From contig VWRR01000011.1 in assembly GCA_013995675.1 (NCBI GenBank), positions 62,001 to 126,000 of the forward strand: DNA of 64,000 nucleotides. Reading direction: 5' to 3'. This document shows, piece after piece, positions 31,448 to 62,286 of this stretch. This DNA comes from Cyanidiococcus yangmingshanensis (Eukaryota > Rhodophyta > Bangiophyceae > Cyanidiales > Cyanidiaceae). A model generated the notes under the pieces. The model was not told the origin of the DNA. It did no database searches and saw only the letters and a list, made by a program, of their open reading frames with translations. The number at the start of each line of letters is the position of its first letter. Position 1 is the stretch's first letter. A program made the position numbers and the translations under genes.

Positions 31448-34400
31448 CTATCGGGACGTAGCGGTTGGCGATCCTATCGATGGCGACGCAACCAACTCAT
31501 TGGAAGTATCATCAAGCAGCCCAGCTCGTACAATACGAACGGACTTTTTGGGCGTGTTGCGTGGTCGAGTGCTCCCAACTTGCGCAATGCGTTGAAGAAT
31601 ATCGATGCCTTCAGTGACCTGTCCAAAGGGTACGTACTTGCCATCCAAGTAACCTGCTTCCGGGCTGATGGTGATAAAGAACCTTCCATCCCCTTGATTG
31701 CGATCATTGTGGACCAAGGCGACAAGGCCTGCTCGGTCGAAACGCAGACGTGGCGACTCCAACTGCCACCGTTCCGTTCGAGGCACAGAATCGCCCGCCT
31801 GTAGTGTTAGACCTGGGACAATGCGGTAAACCGCTGTACTGGAGTAGCGATGCACGCAACCATCTATGAAATGAGCGCTCGACACGGGCGCAATATCGCC
31901 AAAGACGCCAACCACAATCCGACCGGCTGGTTGTCCATCGATTTCGATATCCAGATAGCAACGACTCGTGATTCGTGGTGCTAACGCTGCAAGCGAGTCC
32001 AGCGCGGACGCTTTCTTCTCTGCTGCGGTTTCGTTGGCTGCTGGCATCATCCCGGCAGACGGGATTGAATCAGCTAGGCGCTCATTCCACAGCTGCACAG
32101 CGCTCGAACTGACCCGAATCTGCTGCGGCGGCAGGCCCCATTCGGAAGCGAGCGCAAACACTTGTGGCTGGGTCAAGTTCGCCGGCTGTGCAGACCCCGA
32201 CCGGGTTGACTGCTGCCCAGCATCTTGCCTGGCATGCGAATCTGTTTCAACCGAATGTGATAGAGTCGAAGACGCAGTCGCTATCGGTAGATTCGACCAG
32301 ATGCTCATTGCGGTCCACACTGCGGCGAGGAAGAATACGCCGAGTCGCGACGCCGAACTCGAGGTGCCACCCTTGGACGAGCGTTCTGTGTCGATAAAAC
32401 TTCGAGGGCCATCCCCATGGTGCTTGCCTTGCGGTCGCCGCACAGGCGCACAAGCTCGTTCCAGCCATGCGATGACATCGTGTTCGTGTCTGGCCTCCAA
32501 GCACGGAGCAATACGATCGTACACCTCGCGGTGATACTTGTTCAGCCACGCAATCTCGTCGTCAGTCATTTGATCCAAGTCGAGCAAGTTCGTTGCGATC
32601 GGAACAAAGGTCAGTCGCTCGAAGCCAAGAAAACGCTGACCGCCAAAATTTCGTTCGGTCTCGACAGGACACACGACAAGCAAATTCTCGATCCGAATTC
32701 CAAATTGACCTTCTTCGTAGTAACCGGGTTCATTGCTCACGATCATTCCCGCTCGCAAGCCCACATTCGTCTGACTCATCCGCGGCGTAATGCCCTGCGG
32801 TCCCTCGTGGACATTCAACGCGGCACCAACACCGTGACCAGTACCGTGGCGATAGTCGAGGCCATGCCTCCAGAGCGAGCGTCGAGCGAAGCTATCCAGA
32901 AGAATTCCAGGCGTGTTCTCGGGAAACACTGCAGTATCGACTGCGATATGGCCGCGAAGCACGCTCGTATAGCAAGTTCGCAGGTACGCACTGGGTGTCG
33001 AGGTCGCGGATCCCCCCAGAAACATGGTACGCGTTACATCAGTGGTGCCGTTGACGTACTGTCCGCCTGAATCCAGCAGAAGCACTGTGTCTGGCTCGAG
33101 AGCTCGACAGTCGCTCGGGTCTGCACGATAATGGATGATTGCGCCGTTTGGACCGACCCCAGCAATGGTGTCGAACGATGTGAAAAGGAAACCTGACTCT
33201 TGAGCACGGAATTCAGCCAGCTTTCGGGCAATCGTGTCCTCCTTCAGATCGGTGTATTTGGAGATATCGTTACCACGCGCTTCGATCTGCACATCGAGCC
33301 AGTGGAGAAACCGACAAAGTGCAACGCCATCGCGAATGTGGGCAGCGCGCATGCCGGCCAGCTCAGCCTCATTTTTCACTGCCTTCATCAATGCAAGTGG
33401 CGTGGGTTGCAGACGGACTGCCTCGAAGCGACGTCGCAGATTTGGGAGATCCGCTTGACCGGCAGCAAAGTCCTCGGCGTCGACGCCAGCTGCACAGAGG
33501 ACCATCGCCAGCGACGAGCTGGCTGGATCCATCCAGAGACGCTGTTTTCCAGGCCCAAAATGCGTCCGCAGATGCAGTTCACATTCTTCATAGGAGCGCA
33601 CTCGAACGCCGTTGCTTGCCAACTGCTGTTGTATTGAGACACCGTCCTTTCCATCAAGTTTCCGTGGGTCCACAAACAGCAGTGCCTCGCCGTGACGTGG
33701 CACCAGACCATAAGCGAGCACCACTGGACAATGGGGTATGTCAGCGCCACGTATATTAAAGAGCCACGCAACTTCATCCAGCATCGAGACGAACACTCCG
33801 TCGACATCGTCTGGCATACACTGACGGATAGCGGCAATTTTCTCCAGCGTCGAGCGACCGGCATACTCGGCGGGATGGATTCGTATCGCTGCGGTCGGGA
33901 GCTGTGGTCGGGCGTCTCCCCAGATCTGATCGACTGGATTCAACGTTTCTGCAGAGCCAGATAAAGGAACCAAATGAATGTTCATATCGAGCGCACGTGA
34001 GACCCATGCGTAGCTGTGAACAAACGGGTCAATGCCGACACGGTAACGACCACTGCGCTCGCGGTTGCGTTCCCGTGAACGTTCTGCGAGAAACTCCTCC
34101 AGCGTCGGAGTGCCAGGAGTGCCAGCCTTCATCAGGCGCCAGCCCTTGGGAAGCTGTTGTTCTGCCTGGAGAAAGTATCGCCCATCGGTCCAGAGAAACG
34201 CTTCTGAGTCAGCGGTGGTCACAAGCGCAGTGCCTGCTGAGCCAGTGAACCTGGTTAGAAACTCTCGTCGAGCGTAGTGTCGAGGAGGATATTCTGATTG
34301 ATGCGGGTCTGACGTAGGGACAATAAACGCATCAAGACGCTGGCTGCGAAGCCATTCACGTAACGAGTCGAGCACGCGATCAGCAGCAACGAGCCAAGTA

Positions 34401-34648
34401 TGCCGTCGGCGTGGAGCGTGTAACGGCGCGATGGGCAGAGGTTGGTACCCGCTCTTCCAACTTTTTCGTGAACTCTTCTTATGCCCCACGCCCGCGGACG
34501 CGTGGCGCGAGCGAGTCCCCAGGTTGAATGCACCGCGACGCACTGAGGTGAGACGAGTCACTGGCCAACGCCCGGTGGCCTGCCCCGCCCTCACGTGGCC
34601 AGGATAAACCCACATGAAACCACCGTTATGCATCTTCAAGACATTCAT
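31448..34648 (-). CDS. Xaa-Pro aminopeptidase P fused to a cyclophilin-type prolyl isomerase
   Basis: One uninterrupted frame, 1,066 residues from the ATG at 34648; ATGs at 34633 and 34615 are alternative starts. The frame stays open to 35029, but that part looks non-coding. The first about 80 residues are basic, like an organelle transit peptide. Residues about 90-700 are a complete M24B aminopeptidase P: metal ligands in LLLDSGGQYVNGTTDVTRT, HGTGHGVGAALNVHEGP and SNEPGYYEEGQFGIRIEN. The family's usual end (DVIAWLERACAP) is followed by about 35 linker residues and a hydrophobic segment (LGVFFLAAVWTAMSIW then LPIATASS). Then comes a divergent cyclophilin domain (VYRIVPGLTLQAGDS with catalytic Arg, GRFFITISPE, LDGKYVPFG). 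The hydrophobic segment with ATA resembles a thylakoid-lumen signal, so a plastid precursor cleaved into two enzymes is possible. Confidence 0.8.
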   Translation of the reverse strand: MNVLKMHNGGFMWVYPGHVRAGQATGRWPVTRLTSVRRGAFNLGTRSRHASAGVGHKKSSRKSWKSGYQPLPIAPLHAPRRRHTWLVAADRVLDSLREWLRSQRLDAFIVPTSDPHQSEYPPRHYARREFLTRFTGSAGTALVTTADSEAFLWTDGRYFLQAEQQLPKGWRLMKAGTPGTPTLEEFLAERSRERNRERSGRYRVGIDPFVHSYAWVSRALDMNIHLVPLSGSAETLNPVDQIWGDARPQLPTAAIRIHPAEYAGRSTLEKIAAIRQCMPDDVDGVFVSMLDEVAWLFNIRGADIPHCPVVLAYGLVPRHGEALLFVDPRKLDGKDGVSIQQQLASNGVRVRSYEECELHLRTHFGPGKQRLWMDPASSSLAMVLCAAGVDAEDFAAGQADLPNLRRRFEAVRLQPTPLALMKAVKNEAELAGMRAAHIRDGVALCRFLHWLDVQIEARGNDISKYTDLKEDTIARKLAEFRAQESGFLFTSFDTIAGVGPNGAIIHYRADPSDCRALEPDTVLLLDSGGQYVNGTTDVTRTMFLGGSATSTPSAYLRTCYTSVLRGHIAVDTAVFPENTPGILLDSFARRSLWRHGLDYRHGTGHGVGAALNVHEGPQGITPRMSQTNVGLRAGMIVSNEPGYYEEGQFGIRIENLLVVCPVETERNFGGQRFLGFERLTFVPIATNLLDLDQMTDDEIAWLNKYHREVYDRIAPCLEARHEHDVIAWLERACAPVRRPQGKHHGDGPRSFIDTERSSKGGTSSSASRLGVFFLAAVWTAMSIWSNLPIATASSTLSHSVETDSHARQDAGQQSTRSGSAQPANLTQPQVFALASEWGLPPQQIRVSSSAVQLWNERLADSIPSAGMMPAANETAAEKKASALDSLAALAPRITSRCYLDIEIDGQPAGRIVVGVFGDIAPVSSAHFIDGCVHRYSSTAVYRIVPGLTLQAGDSVPRTERWQLESPRLRFDRAGLVALVHNDRNQGDGRFFITISPEAGYLDGKYVPFGQVTEGIDILQRIAQVGSTRPRNTPKKSVRIVRAGLLDDTSNELVASPSIGSPTATSR

Positions 34649-35721
34649 CACCCGCGAACACGAAAGTAAGTGAAAGTGCACCAAACCGAACCAGCAACCG
34701 ACGTTTCCAGTCGCTCCAGAACAATATACGGGACGTTCGCTCCCTGGCCGGCTCGTCGTACCGGCACGAGGCCCGGTTGCATGGCGAGCCCTCAGAGCTG
34801 CGTTGCTGGTTCGCCTCGATGTGCACGGCCAGCATGGTCCTATCGCCAAAGCTGTGCTACTTGCCGATATGGCGGAGCACTCACCAAGACGAAGCATGGT
34901 ACGCCAGACTGCTAACGTTAGCCGGGAATCATCCGAAAGCGTATTCGGCATGTATCGGCCTCGTTGGACTGTTCCTGCTTGTGTTCGGAGAGACACAGCA
35001 CGCTCTCTTTGATCCCTGCTTTTCTCCATCGGTTTCGAAAAGTCAAGAAGACACGGCCATGAACAAGCATGTCTTGTGTAGCGGGTTTGGACTTTGCATG
35101 GACGCAGTGTCTAGAGCTGGCCAATGAATCTCCCCGAACGAGAGCCAGCGCTTCGATAGAGACCTATTCTTGAATGCGCTCTGGAGACTCGTTGACAGAC
35201 ACCTGCAGACATGAGCATACGAACACGCCACTGAAATACCATCGACCAACTTGATGAACCCGAGATATTCAGGCGCGAAAAAGACGACCCCTTTCCGAGT
35301 GATCGTCCGGGCCATCGGGTGTGTCGTGGTGGAGCGAGCCACGCTGCGGTCCAATGGTACGCTTGTTGGGAACGGTTGCTGGTACTCGTTCGATCTCTCG
35401 TTTGGGTCCGGTCGGAGAGATACTTCTTTCTGCAGAGTGGTTTAAAACTCTTGGTTGGACGAACGAAATTCTTCCAGGAGTTTGAAAGGGTTTGCCTTCT
35501 GCGTACTACTTGGAGGGGGCGTGTCCTTGAAGCGGCAGGTCCGCGCTTTCGATTGACGTGCGATTCGGCTGAGACGAGCTTGGCCGGAGTACTGACTTGC
35601 GCACGACGACCTCAACGGAGAGCGCTGATCCAGCGGTCAACTCTACTCGCTTGGCGGAGCAAGCTCGATTACGGGATAGATCATCGGCTTGGGTCCGGGT
35701 GCTTTCCGGGCACGAGCAGGG
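34649..35721. other. divergent intergenic region
   Basis: Frames here are open on the minus strand (continuing the aminopeptidase frame) and the plus strand, but have shadow-like composition. Promoters of the fused aminopeptidase and the DxD glycosyltransferase must lie here. Confidence 0.5.
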
Positions 35722-46040: not shown

Positions 46041-49000
46041 TTAGGAGGCGCTAGCGTTGACGACGCGGTTCACGGCCACTGCGGTCACAGTACCGTTAGG
46101 TGGAAACTCGGCACGCACAACGCCGAAAACAAAGAGGACGCTCATGAGGTTCTCAATGGGTTGTGTGTTGTTTGGCAAGGTCACCAGCTGGACTGCACCT
46201 GTGGTCGTGACGTTGAGCGGCACGCGTAGTGTATAAGGCAGTGTTCCATTCGCACTCTCCGCTTGGGTTATGTTCACGTCCATGATACCTGTGACGTTAC
46301 GAACCGCAGACAAGAACTGCTGGCGGAAGAGCGCGTTACGGGTTGTGTTCGCGAAATCCTCCGTCGAGACACCCTCCATCTGGAAAGCAACGTTGACGGC
46401 AGCCTTGCCGGCTGGTGGGGATGGGAAACTCGCCAAGTTCGCCGGCGTGGGCACAGGCGATGCTGCCGGTGTCGGTGTCGTCTCGCACAAAAGACCCGTA
46501 AAGCCAGGCACACAGTAACACACGCCGTTGACGCATGCGCCATTGCCATTGCAGCAAGTGGCTGTTGTTGCGTTCTCCGCTGATATTCCGGCGGGTCGAC
46601 AAGAGCTGACGCAGAGGGTCCCGTTCAAATCATAGAGCCGATTTGGTTGAACCAGCGAATAGAGAGGTGGCAATTCCGAAGGCGTGCCCAAAAAGTCGAG
46701 TGATGTGATGTTTTTCGCCGGCGAGACCCGAACGGTAATGTTCGGGCTTGCCGCCCGAGCCACGCTGATAAATGTACCCGAAGATACCGTCGTACTTGTC
46801 TGAATGCGGGTGTACTCGCTCGTTACAAGTTGCTCGAAGGCACCAGATTGTACCGTGGTTTGTAGCGACGAATAAACCGAGAGCGAGTTCACCACCGTCG
46901 TTGCCACGCGTACAGAGATGCGATTCGAGTGCCAACGCACGCGATCGCCCGTGGATACGCTACTCGTGTAGCTCACGAGTCCGTTATTCTGGGTGTAAAC
47001 ACCGCTGCAACCTGTAGGAACAGTCGCTCCAGTCGTGGATGGGAGGCAGTCACAGCCTGTGATCTCCACAGCGTTCGATACCAGACCGCACGACGTCGCC
47101 AGGGAATTCTGAACGATATAGGAGATCTGATCACAGGTCCAGACCTGAACCTGATCAACCACTTGGACATCCAATTGCCAGTCGTACCAGACGATACAAA
47201 TCGGTGGTCGGTTCACAACTACTTCGACCCATTTCACGGGTGCTGGGGCTACAGCTGACACGTACTCAGCGCTTGACGTCACCAGCTGCGAGTATTGAAT
47301 AATATCCGAATATAATTCGCCACCACCGCATATCGGTTCGTAGAGCTGAACGCGCTGCCAGAAATAATTGTTCACAAAGTTGTCCCGAATCGCGTACGTG
47401 TACTGAATCGTGTACGATGAGAAGGTATCAAGACGGATATGCACCACGGCATTCCACGTATCGATCTGCTCACACGAGCGAATCGTCACAATTTCACTAG
47501 GTATGCCAATGTCGTTGCATGAATTCAATATCGCAACCTTGATGGAATCACAGGTGAGTACCTCAGTTCCAAATGAGGCGGACCGGCAGTAGAACGAGGT
47601 ATCGAGGAAAACCCGTCGTGGGTAGATTTGAACCGGAACATAAATAATGCTCGTCGTCTGTTCCAGGAACACAGACGTGACCTGCTCATAGACGACAGTG
47701 CTCACAGAAAGCGAGGGCGAAACCACCGTTGTGGTCTCGGTACTGCTCACGTACAAGCTCTGTAAGTATACATAGGCCTGGTACATCCGCTGCTGCCAAT
47801 TGGCTGGCGCCACGTCCGGAGTTATTGAGCAGGCAACGTATATAGAGCATTCGGTCTCGACAGAAAAACGCAAACTTCCCTTCCTTGGCTGGCTGGAGAC
47901 CAAGCTCTGACGCCCGTCATCCGCTACCATGAGCAAAGACTGTGCCGGACGCATAGATGTACCGGAGCCCGAACTCGCCAAGCTAACGACGACATCGGTT
48001 TCCGTGAATGACTCCACATCTGAAAACGCGTAGTAGTAGACGCGTTGCGCCGTCGACACCACTTCGGAGCAACTAACGCTCACGCCGACAGCGATACGGA
48101 TCGTCGGATTGTCCGGAAGGACAATCTTGTTTGTTGGCAGCGGACTACCATTCGGTAGCGCGGACAATTTCGGTGTCGGCGTCGGCGGTGGCATCGGTTT
48201 CCCAGCGCCGCTCGGCAGATGCAAGCTACTGATACTCTCCACAGAAAGCAGCGTTGCAAGTTTGACCTGGACGGTGCTCGCATCTGATACAGCAACAACC
48301 ACGAATACTGTGAATTGAATATTCACAGTCACGGTCGTGGACGTGCTGGCACGTAACGCTGCTGCATTCAGACCACGTGCGCGAGCCCATGCCCGTCGCA
48401 CAGGTGACACAAGCCCGAGACGAGATGTTCCTGAGGATCCCGGCACTGTGCCGCAGTTGTTGGAAACGGTTACGTTCGATACGGGCACAGACAATGCGGA
48501 TGCGATCGCAGAGGCCAGTGCTGACGCGGCAGACTGGCACACCTCTTCTGATGTTACCGAGAGATACGTGCTCTGCGCGACAGTGGTTATCGCTGGCGTC
48601 GGAGGCGGTGTGGGCATCGGAGTCGGTGTGGCCGATGCTGACACGCTTGGCGACGGGCTCGGTGTTGTCGTCGCATTTGTCGAAGATGTCGGTGTATGCG
48701 AAACACTTGGCGACGGGCTCGGTGCAGCTGTCGTATTTGTCGAAGATGTCGGTGTATGCGATGCGCTCGGTGATGCCACAGGGGTTAACGTTGGTGCCAC
48801 AGAAGGTGAGTGCGTTGCACTCGGTGATGGCAGCACTGTGGTGCTCGGCGTTGAAAGCGAGGTCGTGCTATTCACCATTGAAGGTGACGGTGTCAAACTC
48901 ATGACGTGTGACGGCACAATGGTTGTCGACGGACTTGCAGTCGATGACATCGTCTGCGATGGTGATGGGAACGCGCCAGGCGTGGATGTTATTCCGCTCG

Positions 49001-49820
49001 TCGAAGTCGGTGAAAAAGTTGCTGTTCTCGAGGGAGACGCTCCAAGAGATGGCGATGGTGTCGGCGTCGGTGTTGGTGACAGCGGCGTCGCCATTGTTGT
49101 CGTCGGTGTTAGCGTCGGTGTTAGCGTCGGTGTTGGCGTAGGCGTAGGGGTAGGCGTAGGCGTCGGTGTTGGCGTAGGCGTCGGTGTTGGTGTTGGCGTC
49201 GGTGTTGGCGTCGGTGTTGGTGTTGGCGTTGGCGTTGGCGTTGGCGTCGGTGTTGGCGTAGGCGTCGGCGTTGGTGTTGGTGTTGGTGTTGGCGTAGGCG
49301 TTGGCGTAGGCGTAGGCGTTGGTGTTGGTGTTGGCGTTGGCGTAGGCGTTGGCGTTGGTGTTGGTGTTGGTGTTGGTGTTGGCGTAGGCGTTGGCGTAGG
49401 CGTTGGCGTAGGCGTCGGCGTTGGTGTTGGTGTTGGTGTTGGCGTAGGCGTTGGCGTAGGCGTAGGCGTTGGTGTTGGTGTTGGTGTTGGCGTTGGCGTA
49501 GGCGTTGGCGTTGGTGTTGGTGTTGGTGTTGGTGTTGGCGTAGGCGTTGGCGTAGGCGTTGGCGTAGGCGTTGGCGTAGGCGTAGGCGTTGGCGTCCCAG
49601 ACGGGGACGGTGCCGGTCTCAGTGCAGCTGGAATTTCAGGGACATCAGAATCTCTATTGGCTAACCCAGATCCAGCCACGGCAACAATAAACTCACCTCC
49701 GTTCAGCCAGTACCCTGCGCCCGCGCGTTTCCCGGTAAACGACACAGAGTTGCCAAGCACAACGAAAACCAAAAGGATTACCAAAAGTTTTCGGAGATGC
49801 AGCAGTCCAACTGGTTGCAT
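46041..49820 (-). CDS. large secreted Thr-Pro-repeat surface glycoprotein with EGF-like motif
   Basis: From the ATG at 49820 the product has 1,259 residues. A signal peptide ([20 protein letters not shown]) is followed by a short leader ([10 protein letters not shown]) shared with two tandem small paralogues, then about 80 consecutive Thr-Pro dipeptides (about 75-240). A Ser/Thr/Pro-rich, Asn-Thr-rich mucin-like spacer reaches residue 420. The remaining about 800 residues are an ordered, Cys-containing ectodomain homologous to that of the giant 52988-59842 protein (shared blocks: [58 protein letters not shown]). An EGF-like segment, [19 protein letters not shown], lies near residue 1090. No C-terminal transmembrane helix, so secreted or tethered by partners. 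A cell-surface coat role is inferred. Confidence 0.8.
49103..49591. repeat. GGNGTN hexamer minisatellite encoding (Thr-Pro)n
   Basis: About 80 units of GGCGTA, GGCGTT, GGTGTT and similar, read on the minus strand as Thr-Pro. The plus strand is also open and would read Val-Gly, so long open frames on that strand are artefacts. Third-position variation keeps the dipeptide while units differ, arguing for selection on the protein. Confidence 0.95.
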
Positions 49821-50124
49821 CTTCTCCAAAACTTTTGTAGTGATAACTTGAGATATATGAACTATACTCGCTACGAGTTTCTCTCTGTCTTCAGTGCTTC
49901 AACAAGCACAGAGATGCACTTGCATAAAAAAAAATTCGCCACACAATGTACATACATCCGTGACCATTCGTTCGCTTCCAAATCTGGATCGGGGGGACAC
50001 GTGTACGCCTGCGATCAAGCAGGTGGCACCACCATCGCCCGGCGCGCCAGGCTCACGTCGTTCTCATTTTCGCCATTCGGTGCGCGTTCCTGAGCGTGGC
50101 CGAATCGAGTGGCTCTCGCCGCGA
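49821..50124. other. upstream region of the large surface-protein gene
   Basis: This stretch resembles, with many differences, the segments upstream of the two small paralogues, showing that promoter and coding parts duplicated together. Confidence 0.5.
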
Positions 50125-50727
50125 TTAAACAATATAGGAGCGACTTCGCTGGAGACGCCTGCGAACACCAATACATACGCCAACACATACGCCAACACAT
50201 ACGCCAACAATCAGAATACCAACACCAACACCAACACCAACACCAACACCAACACCAACACCTACAGCTATACGGGTCCCAACTACACCGAATTCAACAA
50301 CTTCGCCAGAAGATGGCGCTGGTGTGGTTAGAGGCGTTCGCGTTGGCGTTCGCGTCGGCGTTCGCGTCGGCGTTCGCGTTGGTGTTGACGTTGGTGTTGG
50401 CGGTGGCGGTGGCGTTGGCGGTGGCGTTGGTGGTGGTATTGGTGTCGGTATTCCAACCGGGGACCCACTAAGTAAAGGAGGAGGATAAGGTACTGGAGCA
50501 CCCAGAAAGTGAGCGACTTCCTGTCTCAGCGCCACTGGGAATTCAGGGGCACTAGACTCTCTATCGGCTGACTCAGATCCAGCCACGGCAACAATAAACT
50601 CACCTCCGCTCAGCCAGTGTCCTGCGCCCGCGCGTTCCCCAGTAAGCGACACAGAGTTGCCCAGCACAACGAAAACTAAAAAGATTACCAAATATTTTCG
50701 GAGATACGGCAGTCCAAATGGTTCCAT
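50125..50727 (-). CDS. small type I membrane protein of the Thr-Pro surface family (tandem copy 1)
   Basis: A product of 200 residues from the ATG at 50727. It has the family signal peptide (MEPFGLPYLRKYLVIFLVFV), the leader [17 protein letters not shown], and a Pro/Thr-rich spacer that includes TPTRTP repeats. After the stretch LTTPAPSSGEVVEF comes one unusual membrane helix built of Val-Gly pairs, ILIVGVCVGVCVGVCIGV. A basic stop-transfer tail, RRRLQRSRSYIV, ends the protein. The ectodomain of the large neighbours is missing: it is a stalk plus anchor. The (Val-Gly) run is encoded by the opposite strand of the same hexamer type that encodes Thr-Pro elsewhere in the cluster. Confidence 0.7.
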   Translation of the reverse strand: MEPFGLPYLRKYLVIFLVFVVLGNSVSLTGERAGAGHWLSGGEFIVAVAGSESADRESSAPEFPVALRQEVAHFLGAPVPYPPPLLSGSPVGIPTPIPPPTPPPTPPPPPTPTSTPTRTPTRTPTRTPTRTPLTTPAPSSGEVVEFGVVGTRIAVGVGVGVGVGVGVGVGILIVGVCVGVCVGVCIGVRRRLQRSRSYIV

Positions 50728-51067
50728 CTTCTCCAAAACTTTTATTGTGATACCCCAAGATATATGACCTACCCTTTCGAAGAGATTTTTTCGCTGACCT
50801 CAGTGCCTCAACAGGCGGGTGCATGCGCTCGCGTGCGGTAAAGATTCGCCACGCAACGCACATGCATCCGCGACCATTTGCTCGCCTCCCAATCTGGATC
50901 GGGGCGGGACACGTGTACGCCTGCGATCAAGCCGGCGGCACCTCCATCGCCTGGTGCGCCAGGTTCACATCGTTCGCACTCCCGCCATTTGCTGCGTGTT
51001 CCTTAGCCCAGCCTGGTGAATCGAGTGGCTTTCGCTGCGACTGAACAGTGCCAGAGCGATTTCGCTG
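50523..51067. repeat. 545-bp segmental tandem duplication, unit A
   Basis: This segment is repeated at 51235-51779, offset 712 bases, with only a handful of substitutions. It spans the N-terminal coding part of small copy 1, the gap upstream of it, and the C-terminal coding end of small copy 2. Confidence 0.95.
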
Positions 51068-51439
51068 GAGACGCCTGCGAACACCAATGCAGATGCCAAT
51101 ACATACGCCAACAATTAGAACTCCAACACTAACTCCAACGCCTATAGCTGCACGGGTCCCAACACCGATTTCAACAACTTCGCCAGAAGATGGCGCTGGT
51201 GTAGTTAGGGGCGTTCCAAACGGAGTCGGTGCCAGTCTCAGCGCCGCTGGGAATTCAGGGGCACTAGACTCTCTATCGGCTGACTCAGATCCAGCCACGG
51301 CAACAATAAACTCACCTCCGCTCAGCCAGTGTCCTGCGCCCGCGCGTTCCCCAGTAAGCGACACAGAGTTGCCCAGCACAACGAAAACTAAAAAGATTAC
51401 CAAATATTTTCGGAGATACGGCAGTCCAAATGGTTCCAT
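50927..51439 (-). CDS. small type I membrane protein of the Thr-Pro surface family (tandem copy 2)
   Basis: A product of 170 residues from the ATG at 51439. The first about 65 residues are identical to those of copy 1, including signal peptide and leader. The spacer is much shorter (LAPTPFGTPLTTPAPSSGE), and the membrane helix is GVGVSVGVLIVGVCIGICIG, followed by RRRLQRNRS and a 40-residue cytosolic tail absent from copy 1. Near-identity of N-terminus and upstream DNA with copy 1 shows very recent duplication, while spacer length has already diverged. Confidence 0.68.
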   Translation of the reverse strand: MEPFGLPYLRKYLVIFLVFVVLGNSVSLTGERAGAGHWLSGGEFIVAVAGSESADRESSAPEFPAALRLAPTPFGTPLTTPAPSSGEVVEIGVGTRAAIGVGVSVGVLIVGVCIGICIGVRRRLQRNRSGTVQSQRKPLDSPGWAKEHAANGGSANDVNLAHQAMEVPPA

Positions 51440-51779
51440 CTTCTCCAAAACTTTTATTGTGATACCCCAAGATATATGACCTACCCTTTCGAAGAGATTT
51501 TTTCGCTGACCTCAGTGCCTCAACAGGCGGGTGCATGCGCTCGCGTGCGGTAAAGATTCGCCACGCAACGCACATGCATCCGCGACCATTTGCTCGCCTC
51601 CCAATCTGGATCGGGGCGGGACACGTGTACGCCTGCGATCAAGCCGGCGGCACCTCCATCGCCTGGTGCGCCAGGTTCACATCGTTCGCACTCCCGCCAT
51701 TTGCTGCGTGTTCCTTAGCCCAGCCTGGTGAATCGAGTGGTTTTCGCTGCGACTGAACAGTGCGAGAGCGATTTCGCCG
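51235..51779. repeat. 545-bp segmental tandem duplication, unit B
   Basis: Second copy of the 50523-51067 segment. Its upstream end (51639-51779) contains an orphan copy of the C-terminal coding tail of small copy 2, a remnant of a further family member lost in an unequal exchange. Confidence 0.9.
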
Positions 51780-52987
51780 GATACGCGATCGCATCGATTG
51801 ATCACGTTTCCTTTCAGATCGAGAGAGCGCTGATAATGTTTGCGCGTGCGCTGCGACAGACACATGCGGCTGCGACGGGAATCGCTAACAACGTCCAGAG
51901 ATGCATTCATTCTAATGGCGAAAACCGGGTCTCGGAATCGAGTCGAGATGTTCCAAAACTTGGCGGCGTCCTGTTGGCGTAGGGTAAGAGAGCGTTTGGA
52001 TCATCTTTCACGCTACATGCGAACTCATGTTTCTGATGCATGGCAGGATACGCCATAACCAATTTGTCTGTACACATCACTTGATAGTCTCTGTCGGCGG
52101 AAGGTTCCGTGAATGCTCTTGCGCCTCCAGTACAGCCGATGCAGAGCTGCGCCTGTCTCGCTCAAACCTTACATACGATAGATGCCACGTGATAGGACGC
52201 TATCCGGCCAGTTACCCCGCCTAGTTTCTGATCAGACTGGGACGACAGGTACGATTCATTCGAACAACGCGAGCGCGCCCCGCCTGAGGAAAGGAAACTC
52301 GCGGGTATGCAGCCATCGAACCGAAACGAGCCTGCACTGCCAAAGCGGACGTGACTCGAAGTGGGTGCATTTATGTCGTTGTCCGGGAAACGGTTTACTA
52401 GAGCGAAGTGCAAGGGTGCGCAAGCTGCAGCCTAGTTCTGGCTTTCTTCCAAGAGAGGGATCCGCTGCCTGCGCGGCACAGCTCTGGATTCAAAAATGAA
52501 GCGTTTCTTTTGGGGTTGTTTCTCGCGACTTCTCGACGAGGATGCTAGCAGGTATCGTGCACAAGATCCCCAATCGTGGCTTGTGTCTGATCCTTTAAAT
52601 CCAAGGTTTCCAATAAGAAGTTTACGCCACTCGACGTGCTTTGCCACCAACTACTTTCGAATGGGTCGAAAAAAGACAACGACGCTTGCATCCATGCACT
52701 TGAGTGAATCCTTTAAAGTAAAGATAATTTCAGGAAGGAACTAGGATTGTAAATAAAGGTCTCCCCGCTAGCGCATACGAGTACCCCCGTGCTCCTCGCT
52801 TTGCTCTAGACGGGGATTGGTTTTCAGAGACCGTCCTCCGCGAACGCTCGTCTTCCCATTCGACGAGCCTTTTCAGGTTTCTCGCCCGACGGATCATGTC
52901 TTATGCTCTCCCAAAACGGGTTCTGCAGGGATAAAACGTTTATGCAACAACGTCCTCTGTACTTTCTGAGATGTTCCTGGCTTCCGT
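51440..52987. other. intergenic region with duplicated flank and gene remnant
   Basis: The part up to 51779 belongs to duplicated unit B. The rest, to 52987, has no convincing gene; an 82-codon ATG frame at 52496-52744 has no recognisable features. Confidence 0.55.
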
Positions 52988-55900
52988 TTAACGCGTGCGC
53001 GAGGCGCTACGTGAGCGTGAGCGTTTGCGTTGTGACAAGACGCTCAGCGCCGCCGCAGAACCGGAACGCACGAGTTTCGGAGTCGATACCAGCGCTCCAG
53101 TCGGGCCGGATTCCCTCGCGGACGGGCCCGATACCCGTTCAGAATCAGGGCGCAGAAGAGATTCTATGAAATTTCGCGCATCAAGCATCGATGTTCCGCC
53201 AAAGAAGACCTGAGTTCCACTTGATGCCGATAGATCATACGCAATGCGAGCTTCGTTCCAGGAGAGACCTCCAATCACAAAGACAATCACTCGCCGGGTT
53301 GGAGCGGCATCTACACTGCCCACAGATGACGATGATGAGCGCCGTCGGCGGCTCAACGACGACTCGCGGATCGCTGAAGATGAGCGTCGCCTCCGCAGGC
53401 TTCGGCTTCGACTTCGGATGCCACTCTCTTCATCATCCGTCGAGAAATCTGAATATTCACCAGCGGACGAGTCTTCCGACAAGTATTCCCGATCTGGTCT
53501 GCGACCTTCGCCAATATACGGGAAGGCTGACTCGCCCAGACGACGCTCGACGAGCAGCGTAGCTAGCTTCTCCAGACGTCCTTCTGCCTGCTGCGAAGCC
53601 TGCATCTCCGCATTGGTTTTGTGCAACGAGACTCCATACTTGTCGCAGAGCGTTTCAACCAGATTCATTACCTGCTGGATGAGCCTTGAATCAGCAGCAG
53701 CAGAACTCCCCGAAGAGATCGACTTGCTCGTGGCGCTGGAAACGGATGTGCTTTGTGAGGAGCTCGTCGATCGTGACTCGGTGAACGAGGAGCGCGCTGC
53801 TACCATTGCCACGAACTCATGGATTTCGGCCACGCTGGTGTTCTGGGTCAGAACGAAAAGCAAGATCAGCCGGATCTTGTCCAGCGTCCGGATGCCATCT
53901 TCATCAAGCAACTGTCGCAGCTGCTCGCGCACTCTGGTCTCTGCATCAGTCCCCACAACACGTTGCGCATGGAGCATTTCAAGCTCCAATGCAGCTATCG
54001 TGCCCAGCTGTGCACTGGCCCAAAGGCTCTGTGCACGCTGTGCCAAACGCTGATGACGCTGAAGGGACTTGGGATCCGCCTCGGGCGGCAAAAGCTCATT
54101 GGCATCCGCCACGTTCGTTCCGAACGCACCTCGTTTCGCAATTCGCAAACGAACCACATCTGGCAGAGGGCGATAACGCACGAGACTCCACACGTCGTCT
54201 GCGTACTCATCGAGCACAACAGCGGATTCGCGCTGACTCTCTGGCTCCAGCAAATTAGGGAACTCCTGCCTCAGCATCATTTGGTAGGTATCATCGTGCA
54301 GCAGCGGGGTGATCAAATCGCAGTCTCTGTCGACAATGAGGAGAACCGTGCGCGAGGCCGATCGTCGCTGGGAACCCGCCCCAGACGAGGGTAAGATAAG
54401 TGGCCCGTAATCGTTGAGAATGCGTGCAAGTTCCTCCGCAACAGCCGCCGGGGCACCAGTACAGGAATCCCGTGCGTAGCGGATACGAGGTCGTTCTTGA
54501 AGGACAGAACAGAGCGTGAGCAATGACTCTGCGATTGTCTGCGCCTTCGTAGGCACCAACTCTGCCGGATAGAGACCTAGGTGGAATAAGCGCTGCTCAA
54601 AGGCACAAAAGTCGATGTTCAGCTCCGTGAACTGCGCGAGTCGCTCAACGAGATGCGGTGCCGTGCGCACTCGGTCCAGGTACTTCTCCTCGACACGCGA
54701 TGTTGCGTAAACTTCGATCGAGGTGCCAGCACCGCTGCTCCTCGCTCCCGTGATACCGTCCTCTACATCGACATCTGCTTCTTCTGAGGTTTTTGTCGCC
54801 TTTGCGAGAGATGTGACGAGCGCGTCAACCGTGCTCGACGTCGGCTTGAAGAGGTAGATCGCTCGATGGCCTTGACTGCTCTGGGGAAGCGCGGCAAACG
54901 AGGGCGGCTCCAGAGTCAACTCCTCCACAAGGTACACTCCGCTTCCAATGAGGTCGCTCATGCGACACGCTGCTGAGAGGACTTGAATTCCTCTTTCGTC
55001 TGCAACGAGAATGCCTGGCGCTCGGTTCCGGTGCTCTTCGACTCCAGGTGAGGGTTCGGCTGCAGTCTGAGCTGTCCTCGCCGTCCCGGCCAGCATTCCG
55101 TAAAGCAGACGCTCGCGTGCCAGCTCACGCAGGGTCGCATTTGGCCCCACGACAAGTGGCATCGTGACCATCGTGGCTCCGTCCACTGCGCCGTACACAG
55201 CCCCATTGGAGTCGGCTTTCAGCGCTCCCACGTCAACAGTATCATTTCTCGGGGGCAACGTTCCCGATGCGGCTCCAGCCAATGCCGCTGCCGGGGTGGA
55301 TGTAGCAGCTTGGCGATGCTGTCTTCGACGTCTCCGCCAGAGGAGCAGCGCCAAGACAGCGAGAATGAGCACTGCGGCACCAGCGACTGCACCGCCAACA
55401 ATAGCGCCTATAGACGCACTCGAGCCGGAGCCATTACCGGAAATTTGTGACGGGTCATTTGAGGCAACACGACGAACAGCAACAGATACGACAGATCCGT
55501 TAGGCGGAAACACTTGGCGTACCTGTTCGTACAGGAATACCGTGCTCAGGAGGCGCAAGACGACATTCGCGTCACTCGGTTTCAGAATCAGTTGCACAGC
55601 ACCCAGAGTGGTGACATTCATCGGTGCTCTCAGTACATGTCGAACGGTGTAGTTATCTTGGCTGCCGTAAACGTCTCTCACGCGAACAGATGAGATCTGC
55701 GCAATCGACTGGATGCTTTGCAGAAGCAAATCTCGGAATCGGGCGTTGTTCGTTGGGTTATAGAACTCAGCGTAGGAAACACCGCGCAACTCCAGAAGCA
55801 CATCCACCGCATCATAGCCGGAGGGTGGCGCTGGGAAACTCGGTGCTGCCGCACTCGACGGTGACGCTGACGCCGACGGTGAGGGTGTCGGTGTCGAGGG

Positions 55901-58900
55901 CGCACGCTGACAGAGCAGGCCCTTGTATCCGCCGACACAGTAACAGACGCCACTCACACAAACACCATTCCCGCTGCAACAAGTCGCCGGCGAAACCTCG
56001 GACTCGTTCAGACCAGGCGGCTGACATGAACTCGCGCAGAGTTTGCCACTGAGATCATAGAGACGCCCAGGTTGGACGACAGAGTACAGTGGCTCTAGTG
56101 TGGAGGGCTTGCCCAAAAAGTCCAATGAAACAAGACTGCTATTCTGCGAAACGTGAATGCTCACATTCGAGGATGAAGAAGATGAATGATGGCGTTGTTG
56201 GCGCAGCTCTCGAAGCTTTCGGGCGAAGGTGTTCCGGAGGTGAGCGGAATGGAAGGACGTCGTCAGATTCGTGCTGACATTCTGTGCTTGGAAAGCATTC
56301 GTTAGGACACGACCCGAGATTCGGTTGTAGTGCCAGCGAACATTCCCGCCAGAAGTGCTTGTCCCACTCGGTGTTGTTGAGGTGCGCGTTCCCGAGCTTG
56401 ATGGAACCGGGCTTGGCGTAGCGCTCGCCGGTGGCGAACTTGGACTGCTCGCTGAGCCAGTGAGCGTCTGTGGTGATGCGCTGGTTGAGCTCACTGGAAC
56501 ACTTGAGCTACTCGTACCCGTTGTCGAGCTCTGGCTGCTTTCGAGGACGACTTGACCACTGCTCGTTGTTGAGAAGCCGCTGCAGCCTGACGGAACTGAA
56601 CCCCCCGGGCCGATAGCCAGACAATCGCAACTCTTGACTAGAATGTCAGTGGTGATGACACCGCAGACCTCCGCGAGTGTCTCCTGCATGACATACGCCA
56701 CCTCGGAGCATGTCCAGTACTCGATGACATCCACTGCCTCGCAGATGTATTCCCACTCGATCCAGACACCACCTACCGATGGACGCTGAGTGACTACCTC
56801 CACCCACTGCACTGGCGTTGGCGTCGGCGTCGGCGTCGGCGTCGCTGTGACTACAGTGCTCTCCACGACGTCAACTGAAGAGTATTGGACAACGTCAGAG
56901 TACAGTTCACCACCTCCGCAGGATGGTTCGTAAACATTCACTTGTTCCCAGAAATAATAGTTTTGAAGATTATCTCGCAGCGCATAGATATACTGATTCG
57001 CATATGAAGAGAATGTGGAGATTCGCACGTGAACAACCACATCCCACACGTTCACTTGTTCACAGGTACGAATCGTCACAATCTCCGTCGGAATGCCAAT
57101 GTTATCGCAGGCATTCAGGACGGCTGTGCGCATGGAACTGCAACTGAGTCGGATCGTTCCCGGCGAGGCCGACTCGCAATACAACGACGTTTCGAGATAG
57201 GCACGGCGTGGGTACACTGGCACCGGTTGGTAGACAAGACTATCGCTATTTCCGAAGAGTGCCGTCACCACCTCCTCCTGCTGAGTGTACGACAATGATG
57301 TCACTGTCGTTGTGGTGGACGATGAGGTCGTTGTCGTTGTCGTTGTGGTCGTCGTGAACGTTTCCGTCTGTACAATGATTTCGCTCTGCAGTGTATATGC
57401 CGCTTGATACATTCGCTGCTGCCAATTCGCTGGTGCGTAGCGGGGATTGAAGGAGCACGCCACGCTGAACGTGTAACTCGTAGAGAAACTCAGGTGGATC
57501 GTGCCCTTGCCGATGCGCAGAGACTTGACAAATTTTGGATCACTTTTCTTCGTGGCGAAATTCCACGGCTCAGCGAACCGCATCCCGCTTGCCAAGGCAC
57601 AAGGACTGAACGATACATCTGATGGGGAAAATCCAGGTATATCGGCAAAGGCGTTGTAGTAGGCGCTCCTTGCCACCGCGAGAATCGCAGAACAAGATAC
57701 ATTGGCCCCGCTCGGAATCATCACGGTCGGTTGATCAGCGAGCACAATTTGTTGAGTCGGCAATGTACTACCGTTCGGCAACGTGTTCAGAAGTGGTGTT
57801 GGAGTTGGCGGTGGAGATGGCAGTCCAGCACCGGAAGGGAAATGTTGATTGCGTAGTGACGACGCACTCAGAAGCTTGTTCAGCGCTTGTTGGGCCTGTG
57901 ATGAATCCGGTTCCGGGACCGTCGCAAATACAGTAAACGCCACGAGACCTGCGGTGCCTCCAGTAGACTGACGGAAAAGCGTAGTAAAGAAGGGCAGATC
58001 AAGAGACTCTCCAGTGGTCAGGAGCCGTAAGATACGACTGTGCATGAGTGCTTGACGATTCAGCGGCAAGCCTGCCGACGCACATCCATCATTCACGGCG
58101 ACTGCGCTCGATGGAATTCCCAGTGCAGCGGCGACCGCTGATGTGAGCGTCATCGATGCAGCCGAGCATGCAGACTCTGTCTGAGCTGAGAGAAACGTTC
58201 GACCAACAATTGTCGTCATCTGTGGTGTTGGAGACGGTGTTGCTGTTGGCGTCGATGATGGTGACGGTGCAGGTGTGGGCGTTCGAGTTGTGTTGCTCAC
58301 AACAGGTGTCGTTGATGGCGACGGTGCAGGTGTGGGCGTTCGAGTTGTGTTGCTCACAACAGGTGTCGTTGATGGCGACGGTGCAGGTGTGGGCGTTCGA
58401 GTTGTGTTGCTCACAACAGGTGTCGTTGATGGCGACGGTGCAGGTGTGGGCGTTCGAGTTGTGTTGCTCACAACTGGCGTCGTTGATGGCGACGGTGCAG
58501 GTGTGGGCGTTCGAGTTGTGTTGCTCACAACAGGTGTCGATGATGGCGACGGTGCAGGTGTGGGTGTTCGAGTTGTGTTGCTCACAACTGGCGTCAATGA
58601 TGGTGACGGTGCAGGTGTTGCTGTTGGTGTCGATGATGGCGACGGTGCAGGTGTGGGTGTTCGAGTCGTGTTGCTCACAACTGGCGTCGTTGATGGCGAC
58701 GGTGCAGGTGTCGGTGTTGGCGTGGGCGTAGGCGTGGGCGTAGGCGTTGGTGTAGGCGTAGGCGTAGGCGTCGGTGTCGGTGTCGGTGTTGGCGTAGGCG
58801 TAGGCGTAGGCGTGGGCGTAGGTGTAGGCGTAGGCGTTGGTGTAGGCGTAGGTGTAGGCGTTGGTGTAGGCGTTGATGTTGGTGTTGGTGTCGGTGTTGG

Positions 58901-59842
58901 TGTCGGTGTCGGTGTCGGTGTAGGCGTTGGTGTAGGCGTTGGTGTAGGCGTAGGCGTAGGCGTAGGCGTAGGCGTAGGCGTTGGTGTTGGTGTTGGTGTC
59001 GGTGTTGGCGTGGGCGTTGGTGTAGGCGTAGGCGTAGGCGTAGGCGTAGGCGTAGGCGTTGGTGTTGGTGTCGGTGTTGGCGTGGGCGTTGGTGTTGGCG
59101 TCGACGGGTCTGACGCGAATAAACTGCTGCCGCCGTGAATGTAGCTGTCGCCTGCTGTGGGCGATGGTGTTGCAGATTGTGTTGCACTTCCGCTTGCTCC
59201 TGCTGAAGGAGAAATAGATCCCGTGCCTGCAATGGTGCTTGAGGCACCTGTCGAGGTACTCGCTGGAGAGGCGGTAGAGCTCAAACTCTCGCTCGGTATG
59301 GGCTGCAAAATCGGTGTCACTGTCGGGCTTGCGGTTAAATGAAGTGAAGGTGATGGGGACGGTGACGGTGTCGGTGTTGGTGTCGGCGTCGGTGTCGGCG
59401 TCGGTGTCGGTGTTGGTGTCGGCGTTACTGAGGGAGTGCTCACAGCCGGAGTAGGTGTTGTTGGTGTCGTTGATCCCACCGCACCACCGGTTGTTGTTGT
59501 TCCAGATCCGAACCCAGTGCCAGAAGTCGTCGACGAGTCCGTCCCTCCCGAGGACGTCGTCGTCGAGCTCGTGTCTGGTGAAGTCGGCCCCGTGGGACCT
59601 GTGCCGGGACCGCCCGTAGAACCTCCAGGTCCAGTTGTCCCACCGGGACCTGTTCCACCTACCGCAGGCCGTTCGACTTGCCACCACCGTCGCTCAAGTA
59701 GCGAAGGTAGTTCCGAGGGTTCATTCGCCGCTCGCGCACTTGCGTCTACGTCACGTGCGCGAACAGCCCCCAAACCAATGTTCAGCAATAACAAAACTAG
59801 GACAATAATAGAATAAAACTTTTTGAACTTTGATGTTCCCAT
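52988..59842 (-). CDS. giant transmembrane protein: Thr-Pro/EGF-like ectodomain fused to a Sec1/Munc18 domain
   Basis: One uninterrupted 2,284-residue frame from the ATG at 59842. In order: signal peptide ([18 protein letters not shown]); Gly/Thr-rich stretch; (Thr-Pro)n runs, about 150-165 and 247-380; a 19-residue repeat array, each copy with an NTT glycosylation sequon, to about 535; an ectodomain homologous to the 46041-49820 protein; an EGF-like segment ([19 protein letters not shown]) near 1290. One transmembrane helix (about 1479-1502, ending [11 protein letters not shown]) follows. After about 65 linker residues comes a complete Sec1/Munc18 domain (about 1568-2230): [56 protein letters not shown] and [20 protein letters not shown]. 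The domain resembles the exocytic Sec1/Munc18 branch, with an Arg/Ser-rich insert and tail. Predicted topology puts it in the cytosol. An ATG at 55171 could start a separate 727-residue SM protein. Confidence 0.82.
58252..58712. repeat. 57-bp (19-residue) tandem repeat array
   Basis: About seven nearly identical in-frame units encode [19 protein letters not shown], with one shortened unit. Each carries an N-glycosylation sequon (NTT) and many possible O-glycosylation sites. Confidence 0.95.
58707..59103. repeat. GGNGTN hexamer minisatellite encoding (Thr-Pro)n
   Basis: About 65 hexamers, read on the minus strand as Thr-Pro; a shorter tract of the same type lies at about 59357-59425. Opposite-strand Val-Gly frames here are artefacts. 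Confidence 0.95.
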
Positions 59843-61161: not shown

Positions 61162-62286
61162 TCAGGCACCAAACTTGTGCGGATCAACGTCGCCATGCTT
61201 CAGGGCAGCATATGGCGCTGGGTCGCCACGTCGAGCCTTAATCAGGTTGGCGCGCAAATGGTTCACATCGCGATGGTGTGCTTCATCCGCGCGGGTAGCA
61301 AGCACGACCTCTCGCAGGTGAGCGTCTGGACCCAGTTGCCAGTAATCGATTGCAAGCGGTGGCGCGGGAATGTTTGGCGTACGGCCCTCGTCGATCTCTT
61401 TCAAATATTCTGTATAAGATACAATCGCTTCCTCCTCCAAATAACCCACCATTCGATGTGCTGTTTTGGGAGATATTGTATAGAGCAGGGTGTAGAAGCT
61501 GAAAAAGCCAGCTTGTGCGGTGATCACCAAAGCGCGCTCCAGCCAGGTTGGTTGTGCAATGCTCATGTAAACCATCAAGTGCATGCGTTCATTCTCTGCT
61601 TCCTCGAGCAGCACACGGATCCAGCCGCCGGACTGTTGAAACCGACGAAGACATTGGAGATGGAGCATCATGCCACCGACCATCCCAGGAACAGCAGCGA
61701 CAGTCTCCAGAACAACTGCTCGGTGGCCGTAACGCTTTCGAAAGAAACTGTCCGCAAAGAACCGCAGAAACTTGACGGTGTAGTACGCAAAGCGATCGCT
61801 CAAACCGGTTGGTTGCACATGCCGCTTCAAGTTGACATTCAGATTCGGTTTGTACGTGTGCTCTGGCAGGAAGCTGTTCCATTTCCAGGGGTAGTTCGGA
61901 TCGCTCTTCGGTGGCGCATCTTTGACCGGCTGGTACGGAGTCTCAGCTGAACCTTCAGCAGTATCCTGTATCGGGGTTTCTCGTGCTGTTTGCGATTGCG
62001 TGTTCAGAGCCCGTAAACCAAAATAAGTGCTCCGCGTTGTCACTAGAGCAGGTGCAACCGATGAGGGCCCCCAAGCCTGCAACGCTCCCAAAGACTTACG
62101 CCCGATACTGCCTGTTTTCGACCGAAGACACCAGTCCGAGGCAACTGGTTTTTGCTGGTGCCCTAGTGCCTGCAACTGCCCCCGCAAGCGTCCCCCTGCG
62201 ACCCGCTGACGACCTGAGGCGACACTTGACGAGGCGCACCGCGCGATGACCGAAAGAACTTGGCGCAAACGGCCTGTAGCTTCCAT
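61162..62286 (-). CDS. AOX: mitochondrial alternative oxidase
   Basis: From the ATG at 62286 the product has 374 residues. The first about 100 are Arg/Ser/Ala-rich, typical of a mitochondrial presequence. The catalytic half is a canonical AOX: Glu194 in [10 protein letters not shown], the ExxH pair Glu233/His236 in ENERMHLM, then [15 protein letters not shown] and [12 protein letters not shown] completing the di-iron site. Two membrane-associated hydrophobic helices ([12 protein letters not shown] and [18 protein letters not shown]) lie between. It oxidises ubiquinol with oxygen without proton pumping, relieving over-reduction. No conserved regulatory Cys as in plant AOX1 is apparent near the N-terminus of the mature protein. 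Confidence 0.96.

What the first reader, a model, noticed from the sequence alone, without database searches (positions are those of the whole stretch)
52988..59842. A transmembrane surface protein carrying a full Sec1/Munc18 domain
SM proteins are normally soluble chaperones of SNARE assembly. Here one open frame runs from a signal peptide through a mucin-like, EGF-bearing ectodomain and a single transmembrane helix into a complete Sec1/Munc18 domain of about 660 residues. The predicted topology is coherent: ectodomain outside, SM domain in the cytosol. The roughly 65-residue juxtamembrane linker has no stop. If real, it would tether the exocytic fusion machinery to the surface coat and make the SM protein an obligate membrane protein. 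I know of no described SM protein of this architecture. A chance read-through between two adjacent genes (second start at 55171) must be excluded.
Basis: partly seen in the sequence, partly recalled or inferred. Interest (0 to 1): 0.92.

Follow-up and report, generated by a model that had tools for sequence, protein, structure and literature searches.

The report
Transmembrane Sec1/Munc18 proteins in red algae
A hot-spring red alga makes cell-surface proteins whose inner half is the membrane-fusion helper Sec1/Munc18, normally a free-floating protein; related species have the same fusion, which suggests that their secretion machinery is wired directly to the cell surface.

Summary
One frame at 52988-59842(-) encodes 2284 aa: signal peptide, Pro/Thr-rich ectodomain with an EGF-like motif, one transmembrane helix, a 68-aa linker and a Sec1 domain spanning the Pfam profile. 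The genome is Cyanidiococcus yangmingshanensis by contig-length match. Conservation rules out read-through of two genes: two metagenome homologues carry helix, linker and SM domain in frame, linker identity 34/59 and 33/59. Named proteins of Cyanidium caldarium, Galdieria partita and a second Cyanidiococcus strain have the same architecture. In this genome 4 of 6 Sec1-type SM loci have ectodomain and helix; a fifth starts with a myristoylation-like motif; the sixth has neither. Linkers are 66-76 aa in 10 of 10 proteins measured. So it is a family, probably older than the Galdieria/Cyanidium split. No paper I found reports the architecture. Likely mechanism (inferred): an SM protein held beside the plasma-membrane syntaxin, its ectodomain in the wall. 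The window copy has a shortened SNARE-templating region and may be a regulatory form. There were no transcript, localisation or binding data.

The parts
52988..59842 (-). whole ORF, 2284 aa, transmembrane Sec1/Munc18 protein
59753..59842 (-). signal peptide region, residues 1-30 (hydrophobic core 9-27)
   Evidence: hydropathy; cleavage site not predicted
58251..59422 (-). mucin-like repeats: period-6 arrays (Pro-Thr) and a 57-bp, 19-aa repeat, with a non-repeat stretch 59102-59359
55412..59752 (-). ectodomain, residues 31-1477; S+T+P 47%, 18 N-glycosylation sequons and 24 Cys counted over residues 28-1477
55451..56359 (-). membrane-proximal part of the ectodomain (residues 1162-1464), 44% identical to the tandem paralogue at 46041-49820
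55907..55978 (-). EGF-like motif, residues 1289-1312 (below the Pfam cut-off)
55340..55411 (-). transmembrane helix, residues 1478-1501
55133..55336 (-). cytosolic linker, residues 1503-1570, basic at its start, 68 aa; residues 1502-1560 are 34/59 and 33/59 identical in P0001 and P0005
55160..55171 (-). Met1558 (55171) and Met1561 (55162), possible internal starts; only Met1561 is conserved in P0001 and P0005
53159..55012 (-). Sec1/Munc18 domain by Pfam, residues 1611-2228 (similarity to other SM proteins starts near 1571)
54053..54178 (-). shortened domain-3a region, residues 1889-1930 (42 aa)
53303..53542 (-). Arg/Ser-rich and acidic insert, residues 2101-2180, 74/80 identical in P0001
46041..49820 (-). 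tandem paralogue of the ectodomain, 1259 aa, with signal-peptide-like start but no transmembrane helix before its stop and no SM domain

Best explanation
A genuine type I membrane protein whose cytosolic domain is a Sec1-clade SM protein, one of a family of receptor-like SM proteins found in Cyanidiophyceae. The signal peptide takes the mucin-like ectodomain across the ER and the protein travels to the plasma membrane (inferred). The flexible 66-76 aa linker places the SM domain on the cytosolic face beside the plasma-membrane syntaxins (SYP1), which are anchored in the same membrane, so the SM domain need not be recruited from the cytosol (inferred). There it promotes or gates SNARE assembly for wall- or matrix-directed secretion, and the ectodomain, held in the proteinaceous wall, localises or regulates it (inferred). 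Shown: open frame, conservation of the fusion, clade, linker length, presence of syntaxins with syntaxin-1-like N-termini. Not shown: transcript, protein size, location, binding, direction of effect. The architecture I hold at about 0.95; the cis-SNARE function at about 0.5.
For: Single ORF and full Sec1 profile. P0001 aligns over 925 residues through helix, linker and SM at 79%; P0005 is 66% identical over 99% of residues 1280-2284; linker identity 34/59 and 33/59. Hydrophobic N-terminus, one helix and Sec1 domain in named proteins of G. partita (P0004), Cc. yangmingshanensis (P0006, P0007) and Cd. caldarium (P0009). A second uninterrupted fusion in this genome at C20, 1253 aa. Linker 66-76 aa in 10 of 10 proteins measured. 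Sec1-type by best solved structure and by the tree, where the 20 Sec1-type rows stand apart from the Sly1 and Vps45 rows at 95/96. Two syntaxin-domain loci over the cut-off, each with a C-terminal anchor and an Asp-Arg-Leu N-terminus (MDRLEELRKG, MQDRLSEVKG); Asp, Arg and a Leu/Phe of the syntaxin N-peptide make the key contacts with SM domain 1 (PMC4224468, passage). A Munc18c fragment with an engineered transmembrane anchor stimulated fusion on the t-SNARE membrane but not on the vesicle (PMC9547204, passages). Four of 10 SM genes by mRNA and 5 SM proteins are higher in walled diploid cells of this species (PMC13353863, section 17).
Against: The window's SM domain is diverged: its 3a region is 42 residues against 56-96 in the 10 aligned rows outside its own three-row group, and the YRAAHVFFT motif of domain 1 is replaced, so fusion-promoting activity of this copy is doubtful. 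Nothing I saw says which SM genes are diploid-enriched. Ectodomain homology between subfamilies is weak, so a single origin of the fusion is not proven; the AU test only fails to reject it (p 0.28). No structure model could be made.
Confidence: 0.6

Rival explanations
1. A receptor with a repurposed SM domain: the window copy binds syntaxin as a brake or scaffold rather than promoting fusion, and the ectodomain relieves or imposes the block.
For: Shortened 3a region in 3 of 3 members of the window's group (42 residues), lost YRAAHVFFT motif, long stem branch of the group (1.82 changes per column). The SNARE-like peptide in domain 3a was essential for Munc18c stimulation (PMC9547204, passages).
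Against: The SM sequence is still 150/200 and 279/340 identical to P0001 in its two main parts, so it is under constraint; other family members keep longer 3a regions.
Confidence: 0.25
2. Regulated cleavage or an internal start releases a soluble SM domain, so that the fused form is a precursor or one of two isoforms.
For: Met1561 lies 10 residues before the SM start and is conserved in 3 of 3 close members.
Against: Positions of linker Met differ across the family; in P0006 and P0008 the only linker Met is 43-44 residues upstream of the SM start. The upstream linker is conserved as protein.
Confidence: 0.12
3. The protein resides on secretory vesicles or Golgi rather than the plasma membrane and acts in trans.
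For: A signal peptide and helix do not fix the destination; no localisation data (no call bears on it).
Against: Sec1-clade SMs serve the plasma membrane (established knowledge); in the engineered precedent vesicle anchoring did not work.
Confidence: 0.1
4. Artefact: two adjacent genes read through, or an assembly join.
For: The linker alone is short enough to be open by chance (2952 of 20000 shuffles) and its codon score is not distinctive; several other SM loci in this assembly have frame breaks.
Against: Same fusion in independent assemblies and species, with conserved linker and linker length.
Confidence: 0.02

Closest known systems
Sec1/Munc18 (SM) proteins of the exocytic Sec1 clade (Munc18-1/2/3, yeast Sec1, plant KEULE/SEC11)
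   Same: Full-length Sec1 domain; closest solved structures are Munc18-2 and Munc18-1; in the Sec1 part of the tree.
   Different: Known members are cytosolic or peripheral (established knowledge); here a signal peptide, ectodomain and transmembrane helix precede the domain. The window copy also has a shorter 3a region and an Arg/Ser-rich insert.
Fungal wall sensors (Wsc1, Mid2 type)
   Same: Ser/Thr-rich glycoprotein-like ectodomain, one helix, cytosolic effector part (comparison recalled; Wsc1 papers seen in a search listing only).
   Different: No WSC domain among the Pfam matches; the cytosolic part is an SM protein, not a short signalling tail.
Engineered membrane-anchored Munc18c SLP peptide (PMC9547204, passages)
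   Same: An SM-derived fusion activator held by a transmembrane domain in the t-SNARE membrane.
   Different: Artificial peptide fragment; here a natural full-length SM domain with an ectodomain.

Membership tests
Sec1/Munc18 protein, Sec1 clade | full-length Sec1 domain | tested here: met
   PF00995 2-575/575, E 1.3e-58
Sec1/Munc18 protein, Sec1 clade | closer to Sec1/Munc18 than to Sly1, Vps45, Vps33 | tested here: met
   best PDB hit Munc18-2 E 2.6e-24, best Vps45 1.1e-9, Sly1 0.0015, no Vps33 among the 14 hits; tree split from Sly1 and Vps45 95/96; Vps33 was not a row in the tree
Sec1/Munc18 protein, Sec1 clade | domain-3a hairpin that templates SNARE assembly | tested here: inconclusive
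   42 residues between anchors against 56 in P0012; 3 of 3 in the window's group short, 10 of 10 other aligned rows 56-96 (13 of the 22 tree rows were aligned); no structure model
Sec1/Munc18 protein, Sec1 clade | domain-1 pocket for the syntaxin N-peptide | tested here: inconclusive
   motif of P0012 largely kept in P0006 and P0009, changed in the window group; pocket residues not mapped on a structure
Sec1/Munc18 protein, Sec1 clade | soluble or peripheral, without its own membrane span (usual, not strictly defining) | tested here: not met
   signal peptide and one helix at 1481-1499. None of the 8 retrieved Sec1 proteins P0011-P0018 shows a helix, but only 4 of these (P0012-P0015) start at a normal SM N-terminus; the other 4 begin later and say little
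Sec1/Munc18 protein, Sec1 clade | binds a cognate syntaxin and regulates SNARE assembly | not testable with these tools
   needs biochemistry
WSC-type wall sensor | cysteine-rich WSC domain | tested here: not met
   not among the 7 Pfam families matched up to E 1
WSC-type wall sensor | Ser/Thr-rich ectodomain with one transmembrane helix | tested here: met
   S+T+P 47% of 1450 residues, one helix

The most novel reading that the evidence does not exclude
In Cyanidiophyceae the exocytic SM repertoire has been turned into membrane-anchored, receptor-like proteins: different ectodomains (mucin/EGF, a sugar-hydrolase-like domain, Ser/Thr-rich) sit on a Sec1-type SM domain by a linker of nearly constant length, so that contact with wall or matrix gates SNARE assembly directly, without an intervening signalling cascade. 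Other Sec1-type members may use lipid anchors instead (an MGNVCSS N-terminus at C8:61; a C-terminal FCGACFC at C8:390).
Probability: 0.3. Interest if true: 0.93.

Novelty: new variant of a known kind. Interest (0 to 1): 0.85.

Why it matters
SM proteins are among the most conserved parts of membrane fusion and are thought of as soluble partners recruited by syntaxin. A lineage that welded them to surface ectodomains, kept the weld across deeply separated genera and multiplied it, would be a natural experiment on whether SM proteins act in cis on the target membrane, and a direct route from wall state to secretion. Genetic manipulation of wall-less haploids of Cyanidioschyzon, Cyanidiococcus and Cyanidium is reported (PMC13353863 abstract), so it can be tested.

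Tried and rejected
Codon-bias scoring of the linker did not discriminate: linker score 1.8, and 12% of 606 non-genic frames score at least as high; 2952 of 20000 shuffles stay open. I therefore rest on conservation.

Exocyst-loss rationale (anchoring replaces exocyst recruitment of Sec1): not supported. Sec6 is present at C16:103188. Exo70, Sec10 and Sec15 gave no match, but the tool's 14 control genomes were silent for these and also for Sec1, Sec6 and TRAPP, so the misses do not show absence. TRAPP was found at three places in this genome. The syntaxin model also rang below cut-off in 2 of the 14 controls; both matches here are over the cut-off.

A shared membrane-proximal ectodomain across subfamilies: profile comparison gave 53.9% probability for C20 with C1 and 19.01% or less for the other 9 of 10 pairs. 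Not established beyond C20/C1, which also match by BLASTP at 9e-8.

Single origin of the fusion by tree: unresolved. AU p 0.28 for the transmembrane rows and 0.399 for all cyanidiophyte Sec1 rows; long branches (C20 with C1, C8:61) limit it. The tree used 22 rows; left out were P0007 (same gene as P0006), P0010 (fragment with a shifted tail), P0018 (448 aa), the C10 copy and C13.

Sensitivity of the protein searches is limited: each scored only about 8000 candidates sharing most words, and the third did not return P0001 or P0004, known relatives in its length range. Absence from these lists means little.

Structure prediction: the job failed and new jobs were not accepted. NCBIfam gave nothing.
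Full report
THE OBSERVATION. The reverse strand at 52988-59842 holds one ATG-to-stop frame of 2284 codons. Hydropathy shows two segments only at the threshold used, residues 9-27 and 1481-1499. Pfam finds the Sec1 family over residues 1611-2228, profile 2-575 of 575, E 1.3e-58, and a weak EGF-like motif at 1289-1312, below cut-off. The ectodomain is 47% Ser, Thr and Pro with 18 N-glycosylation sequons and 24 cysteines, and carries period-6 repeats (Pro-Thr) and a 19-residue repeat. A run of arginines follows the helix, so the positive-inside rule puts the SM domain in the cytosol (inference).

THE GENOME. The window is part of a 12.07-Mb genome in 20 contigs. Contig C4 is 546,605 bases, the same length as the contig of P0007, a Cyanidiococcus yangmingshanensis protein. 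Size and number of contigs agree with published assemblies of that species (12.0-12.1 Mb, 20 contigs; PMC13353863 Table 1, passage seen). P0006 belongs to the CCYA assembly, strain 8.1.23 F7 (name; code in PMC9812998, passage); since its contig has another length, the window's genome is probably a different strain.

READ-THROUGH RULED OUT BY CONSERVATION. Three database searches were made. The SM part found 4 proteins, the full protein scored on residues 1280-2284 found 3, and an alignment of SM domains found 15, of which 4 had been seen before. P0001 aligns with the window protein over 925 residues, 79% identical, from the membrane-proximal ectodomain through helix and linker to near the C-terminus. 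P0005 (1677 aa) is 66% identical over 99% of the scored region. Over linker residues 1502-1560 identity is 34/59 and 33/59, with insertions that keep frame. Three named proteins from other assemblies have a hydrophobic N-terminus, one helix and a Sec1 domain: P0004 (Galdieria partita GpartN1_g1423.t1), P0006 (Cc. yangmingshanensis) and P0009 (Cyanidium caldarium CDCA12G3433). P0007, the P0006 gene of the assembly with the window's contig length, has them too. P0001, P0003, P0005 and P0008 begin inside the ectodomain, and P0002 lacks a hydrophobic start, so their signal peptides are not seen. The codon-bias test was not informative.

A FAMILY. The Sec1 model finds ten loci in the genome (16 matches, one locus below cut-off there), which agrees with the 10 SM genes that Hirooka et al. 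count for this species (PMC13353863 section 17). By best solved structure, six are Sec1/Munc18-type: the window, C20, C8:390, C4:330 judged by its intact orthologue P0006, C8:61 and C1. C5 is Sly1, C4:383 is Vps45, C10 looks by eye like a near-copy of C5 (not searched). C13 matched no SM structure but passes the Sec1 cut-off as a whole frame; Vps33 is my guess. Of the six Sec1-type loci, four have ectodomain and helix: the window, C20 (1253 aa in one frame), C4:330 and C1. Their signal peptides were scored for the window, C20 and P0006/P0007; for C1 a hydrophobic stretch near residue 30-48 is judged by eye. C4:330 and C1 have frame breaks in this assembly; P0006 from the other strain is intact. 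C8:61 starts MGNVCSSG, which resembles an N-myristoylation and palmitoylation signal (motif recalled). C8:390 has no helix; it ends in a cysteine cluster, FCGACFC. In 10 of 10 transmembrane SM proteins measured the linker is 66-76 residues (C1 not measured because of its frame break, P0007 because it is the P0006 gene). C1's ectodomain matches PF06439, a sugar-hydrolase-like family, over its cut-off (E 2.3e-6), and C20's ectodomain is related to it (BLASTP 9e-8).

PHYLOGENY. In a 22-row tree the 20 Sec1-type rows are apart from Sly1 and Vps45 at 95/96; the window's group is 100/100 and stands next to the P0006/P0009 group at 92/94; seven retrieved Sec1 rows that I take to lie outside the cyanidiophytes form a branch at 89/98. 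One clade of all transmembrane rows is not rejected (p 0.28), nor is one clade of all cyanidiophyte Sec1 rows (p 0.399). The simplest reading is one fusion before Galdieria and the Cyanidiales parted, but this is not proven. None of the 8 retrieved Sec1 proteins P0011-P0018 shows a helix, but P0011, P0016, P0017 and P0018 start past the normal SM N-terminus, so only 4 are informative (one fish, two named fungi, one unnamed). No non-cyanidiophyte red alga was among the named hits, and Cz. merolae was not retrieved.

THE NEIGHBOUR. At 46041-49820(-) lies a tandem paralogue of the ectodomain (52% over residues 249-1105, 44% over 1162-1464) that ends just before where the helix would start; the SM part has no match next to it in the genome. 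So the ectodomain also exists as a presumably secreted protein.

MECHANISM. The genome has two syntaxin-domain loci; both proteins have a C-terminal hydrophobic anchor and begin MDRLEELRKG and MQDRLSEVKG, like the syntaxin-1 N-peptide (recalled); Asp, Arg and Leu/Phe of that peptide contact SM domain 1 (PMC4224468, passage). Hirooka et al. report two SYP1 genes, one per life-cycle phase, and SM genes enriched in the walled diploid, and propose a role in wall construction; the wall of an alga then called Cd. caldarium is 50-55% protein (section 16 part 1). A Munc18c fragment with an engineered transmembrane domain stimulated fusion from the t-SNARE membrane and not from the vesicle (PMC9547204, passages). 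I therefore propose that these proteins keep an SM domain in cis with SYP1 and couple its action to the wall through the ectodomain. Against this for the window copy: its 3a region, where the SNARE-like peptide lies in Munc18, has 42 residues against 56 in a fish Munc18-1 and 63-67 in P0004, P0006 and P0009, and its domain-1 motif is changed. It may be a regulatory or inhibitory member.

IN PRINT. Ten searches of the held library listed no title or abstract start that describes a transmembrane SM protein; two returned nothing, and searches listed only part of what they found (15 of 6,589, 10 of 28, 6 of 8). PMC13353863 (sections 16 part 1 and 17, abstract, and all passages with the terms) counts the SM genes; its main text holds the word transmembrane twice, in a methods sentence and a reference title, never on SM proteins. 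PMC1810245 (section 14 and passages) classifies the most canonical Cz. merolae sequences and has no occurrence of transmembrane. PMC9812998 has no occurrence of Sec1, Munc18 or syntaxin. PMC10377500 and PMC5634486 were seen in listings only. Subscription papers and supplements were not searched. Databases already hold such proteins under names such as syntaxin binding protein (P0007).

Noticed in passing
window 46041-51840(-): Tandem array of related surface-protein genes: the 1259-aa ectodomain paralogue and two short genes (50125-50727, 50927-51439) with a similar signal peptide, plus a repeat of the end of the short gene near 51640-51800 (by eye).
   Followed up: partly
window 31448-35029(-): One ORF of 1193 aa joins an X-prolyl aminopeptidase-like part (creatinase-N, M24) to a cyclophilin-type prolyl isomerase domain; an unusual but sensible pairing.
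   Followed up: no
L027 1995-5110(-) (C8:61): Sec1-type SM gene whose protein would begin MGNVCSSG, a myristoylation/palmitoylation-like start; it is split over two frames here.
   Followed up: partly
L030 2050-5031(+) (C8:390): The Sec1-type locus with neither a helix nor a myristoylation-like start ends in a cysteine cluster (FCGACFC) that might be S-acylated.
   Followed up: no
L025, L026, L027, L028, L029: Several SM loci have frame breaks in this assembly; C4:330 is intact in the other strain's protein P0006, which suggests sequence errors or strain differences.
   Followed up: partly
L031 and L028 (C5:308889, C10:32286): Two Sly1-type loci that look near-identical by eye, upstream sequence included, on two contigs; one is split in two frames.
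   Followed up: no
L029 3590-5029(-) (C1): Ectodomain of the C1 transmembrane SM gene matches PF06439 (3-keto-disaccharide hydrolase), a possible glycan-binding module.
   Followed up: partly
window 53303-53542(-): Arg/Ser-rich insert in the SM domain, more conserved than its surroundings (74/80 in P0001) and with counterparts in P0004, P0006 and P0002; function unknown, perhaps phosphorylated.
   Followed up: no
P0004 residues 381-442: The region around the helix of the Galdieria protein weakly matches PF03302, a Giardia variant-specific surface protein family (E 9.6e-5, 21.9 bits, below the 31.4 cut-off).
   Followed up: no
window 61162-62286(-): Alternative oxidase gene, the nearest gene I could assign upstream of the SM gene.
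   Followed up: no
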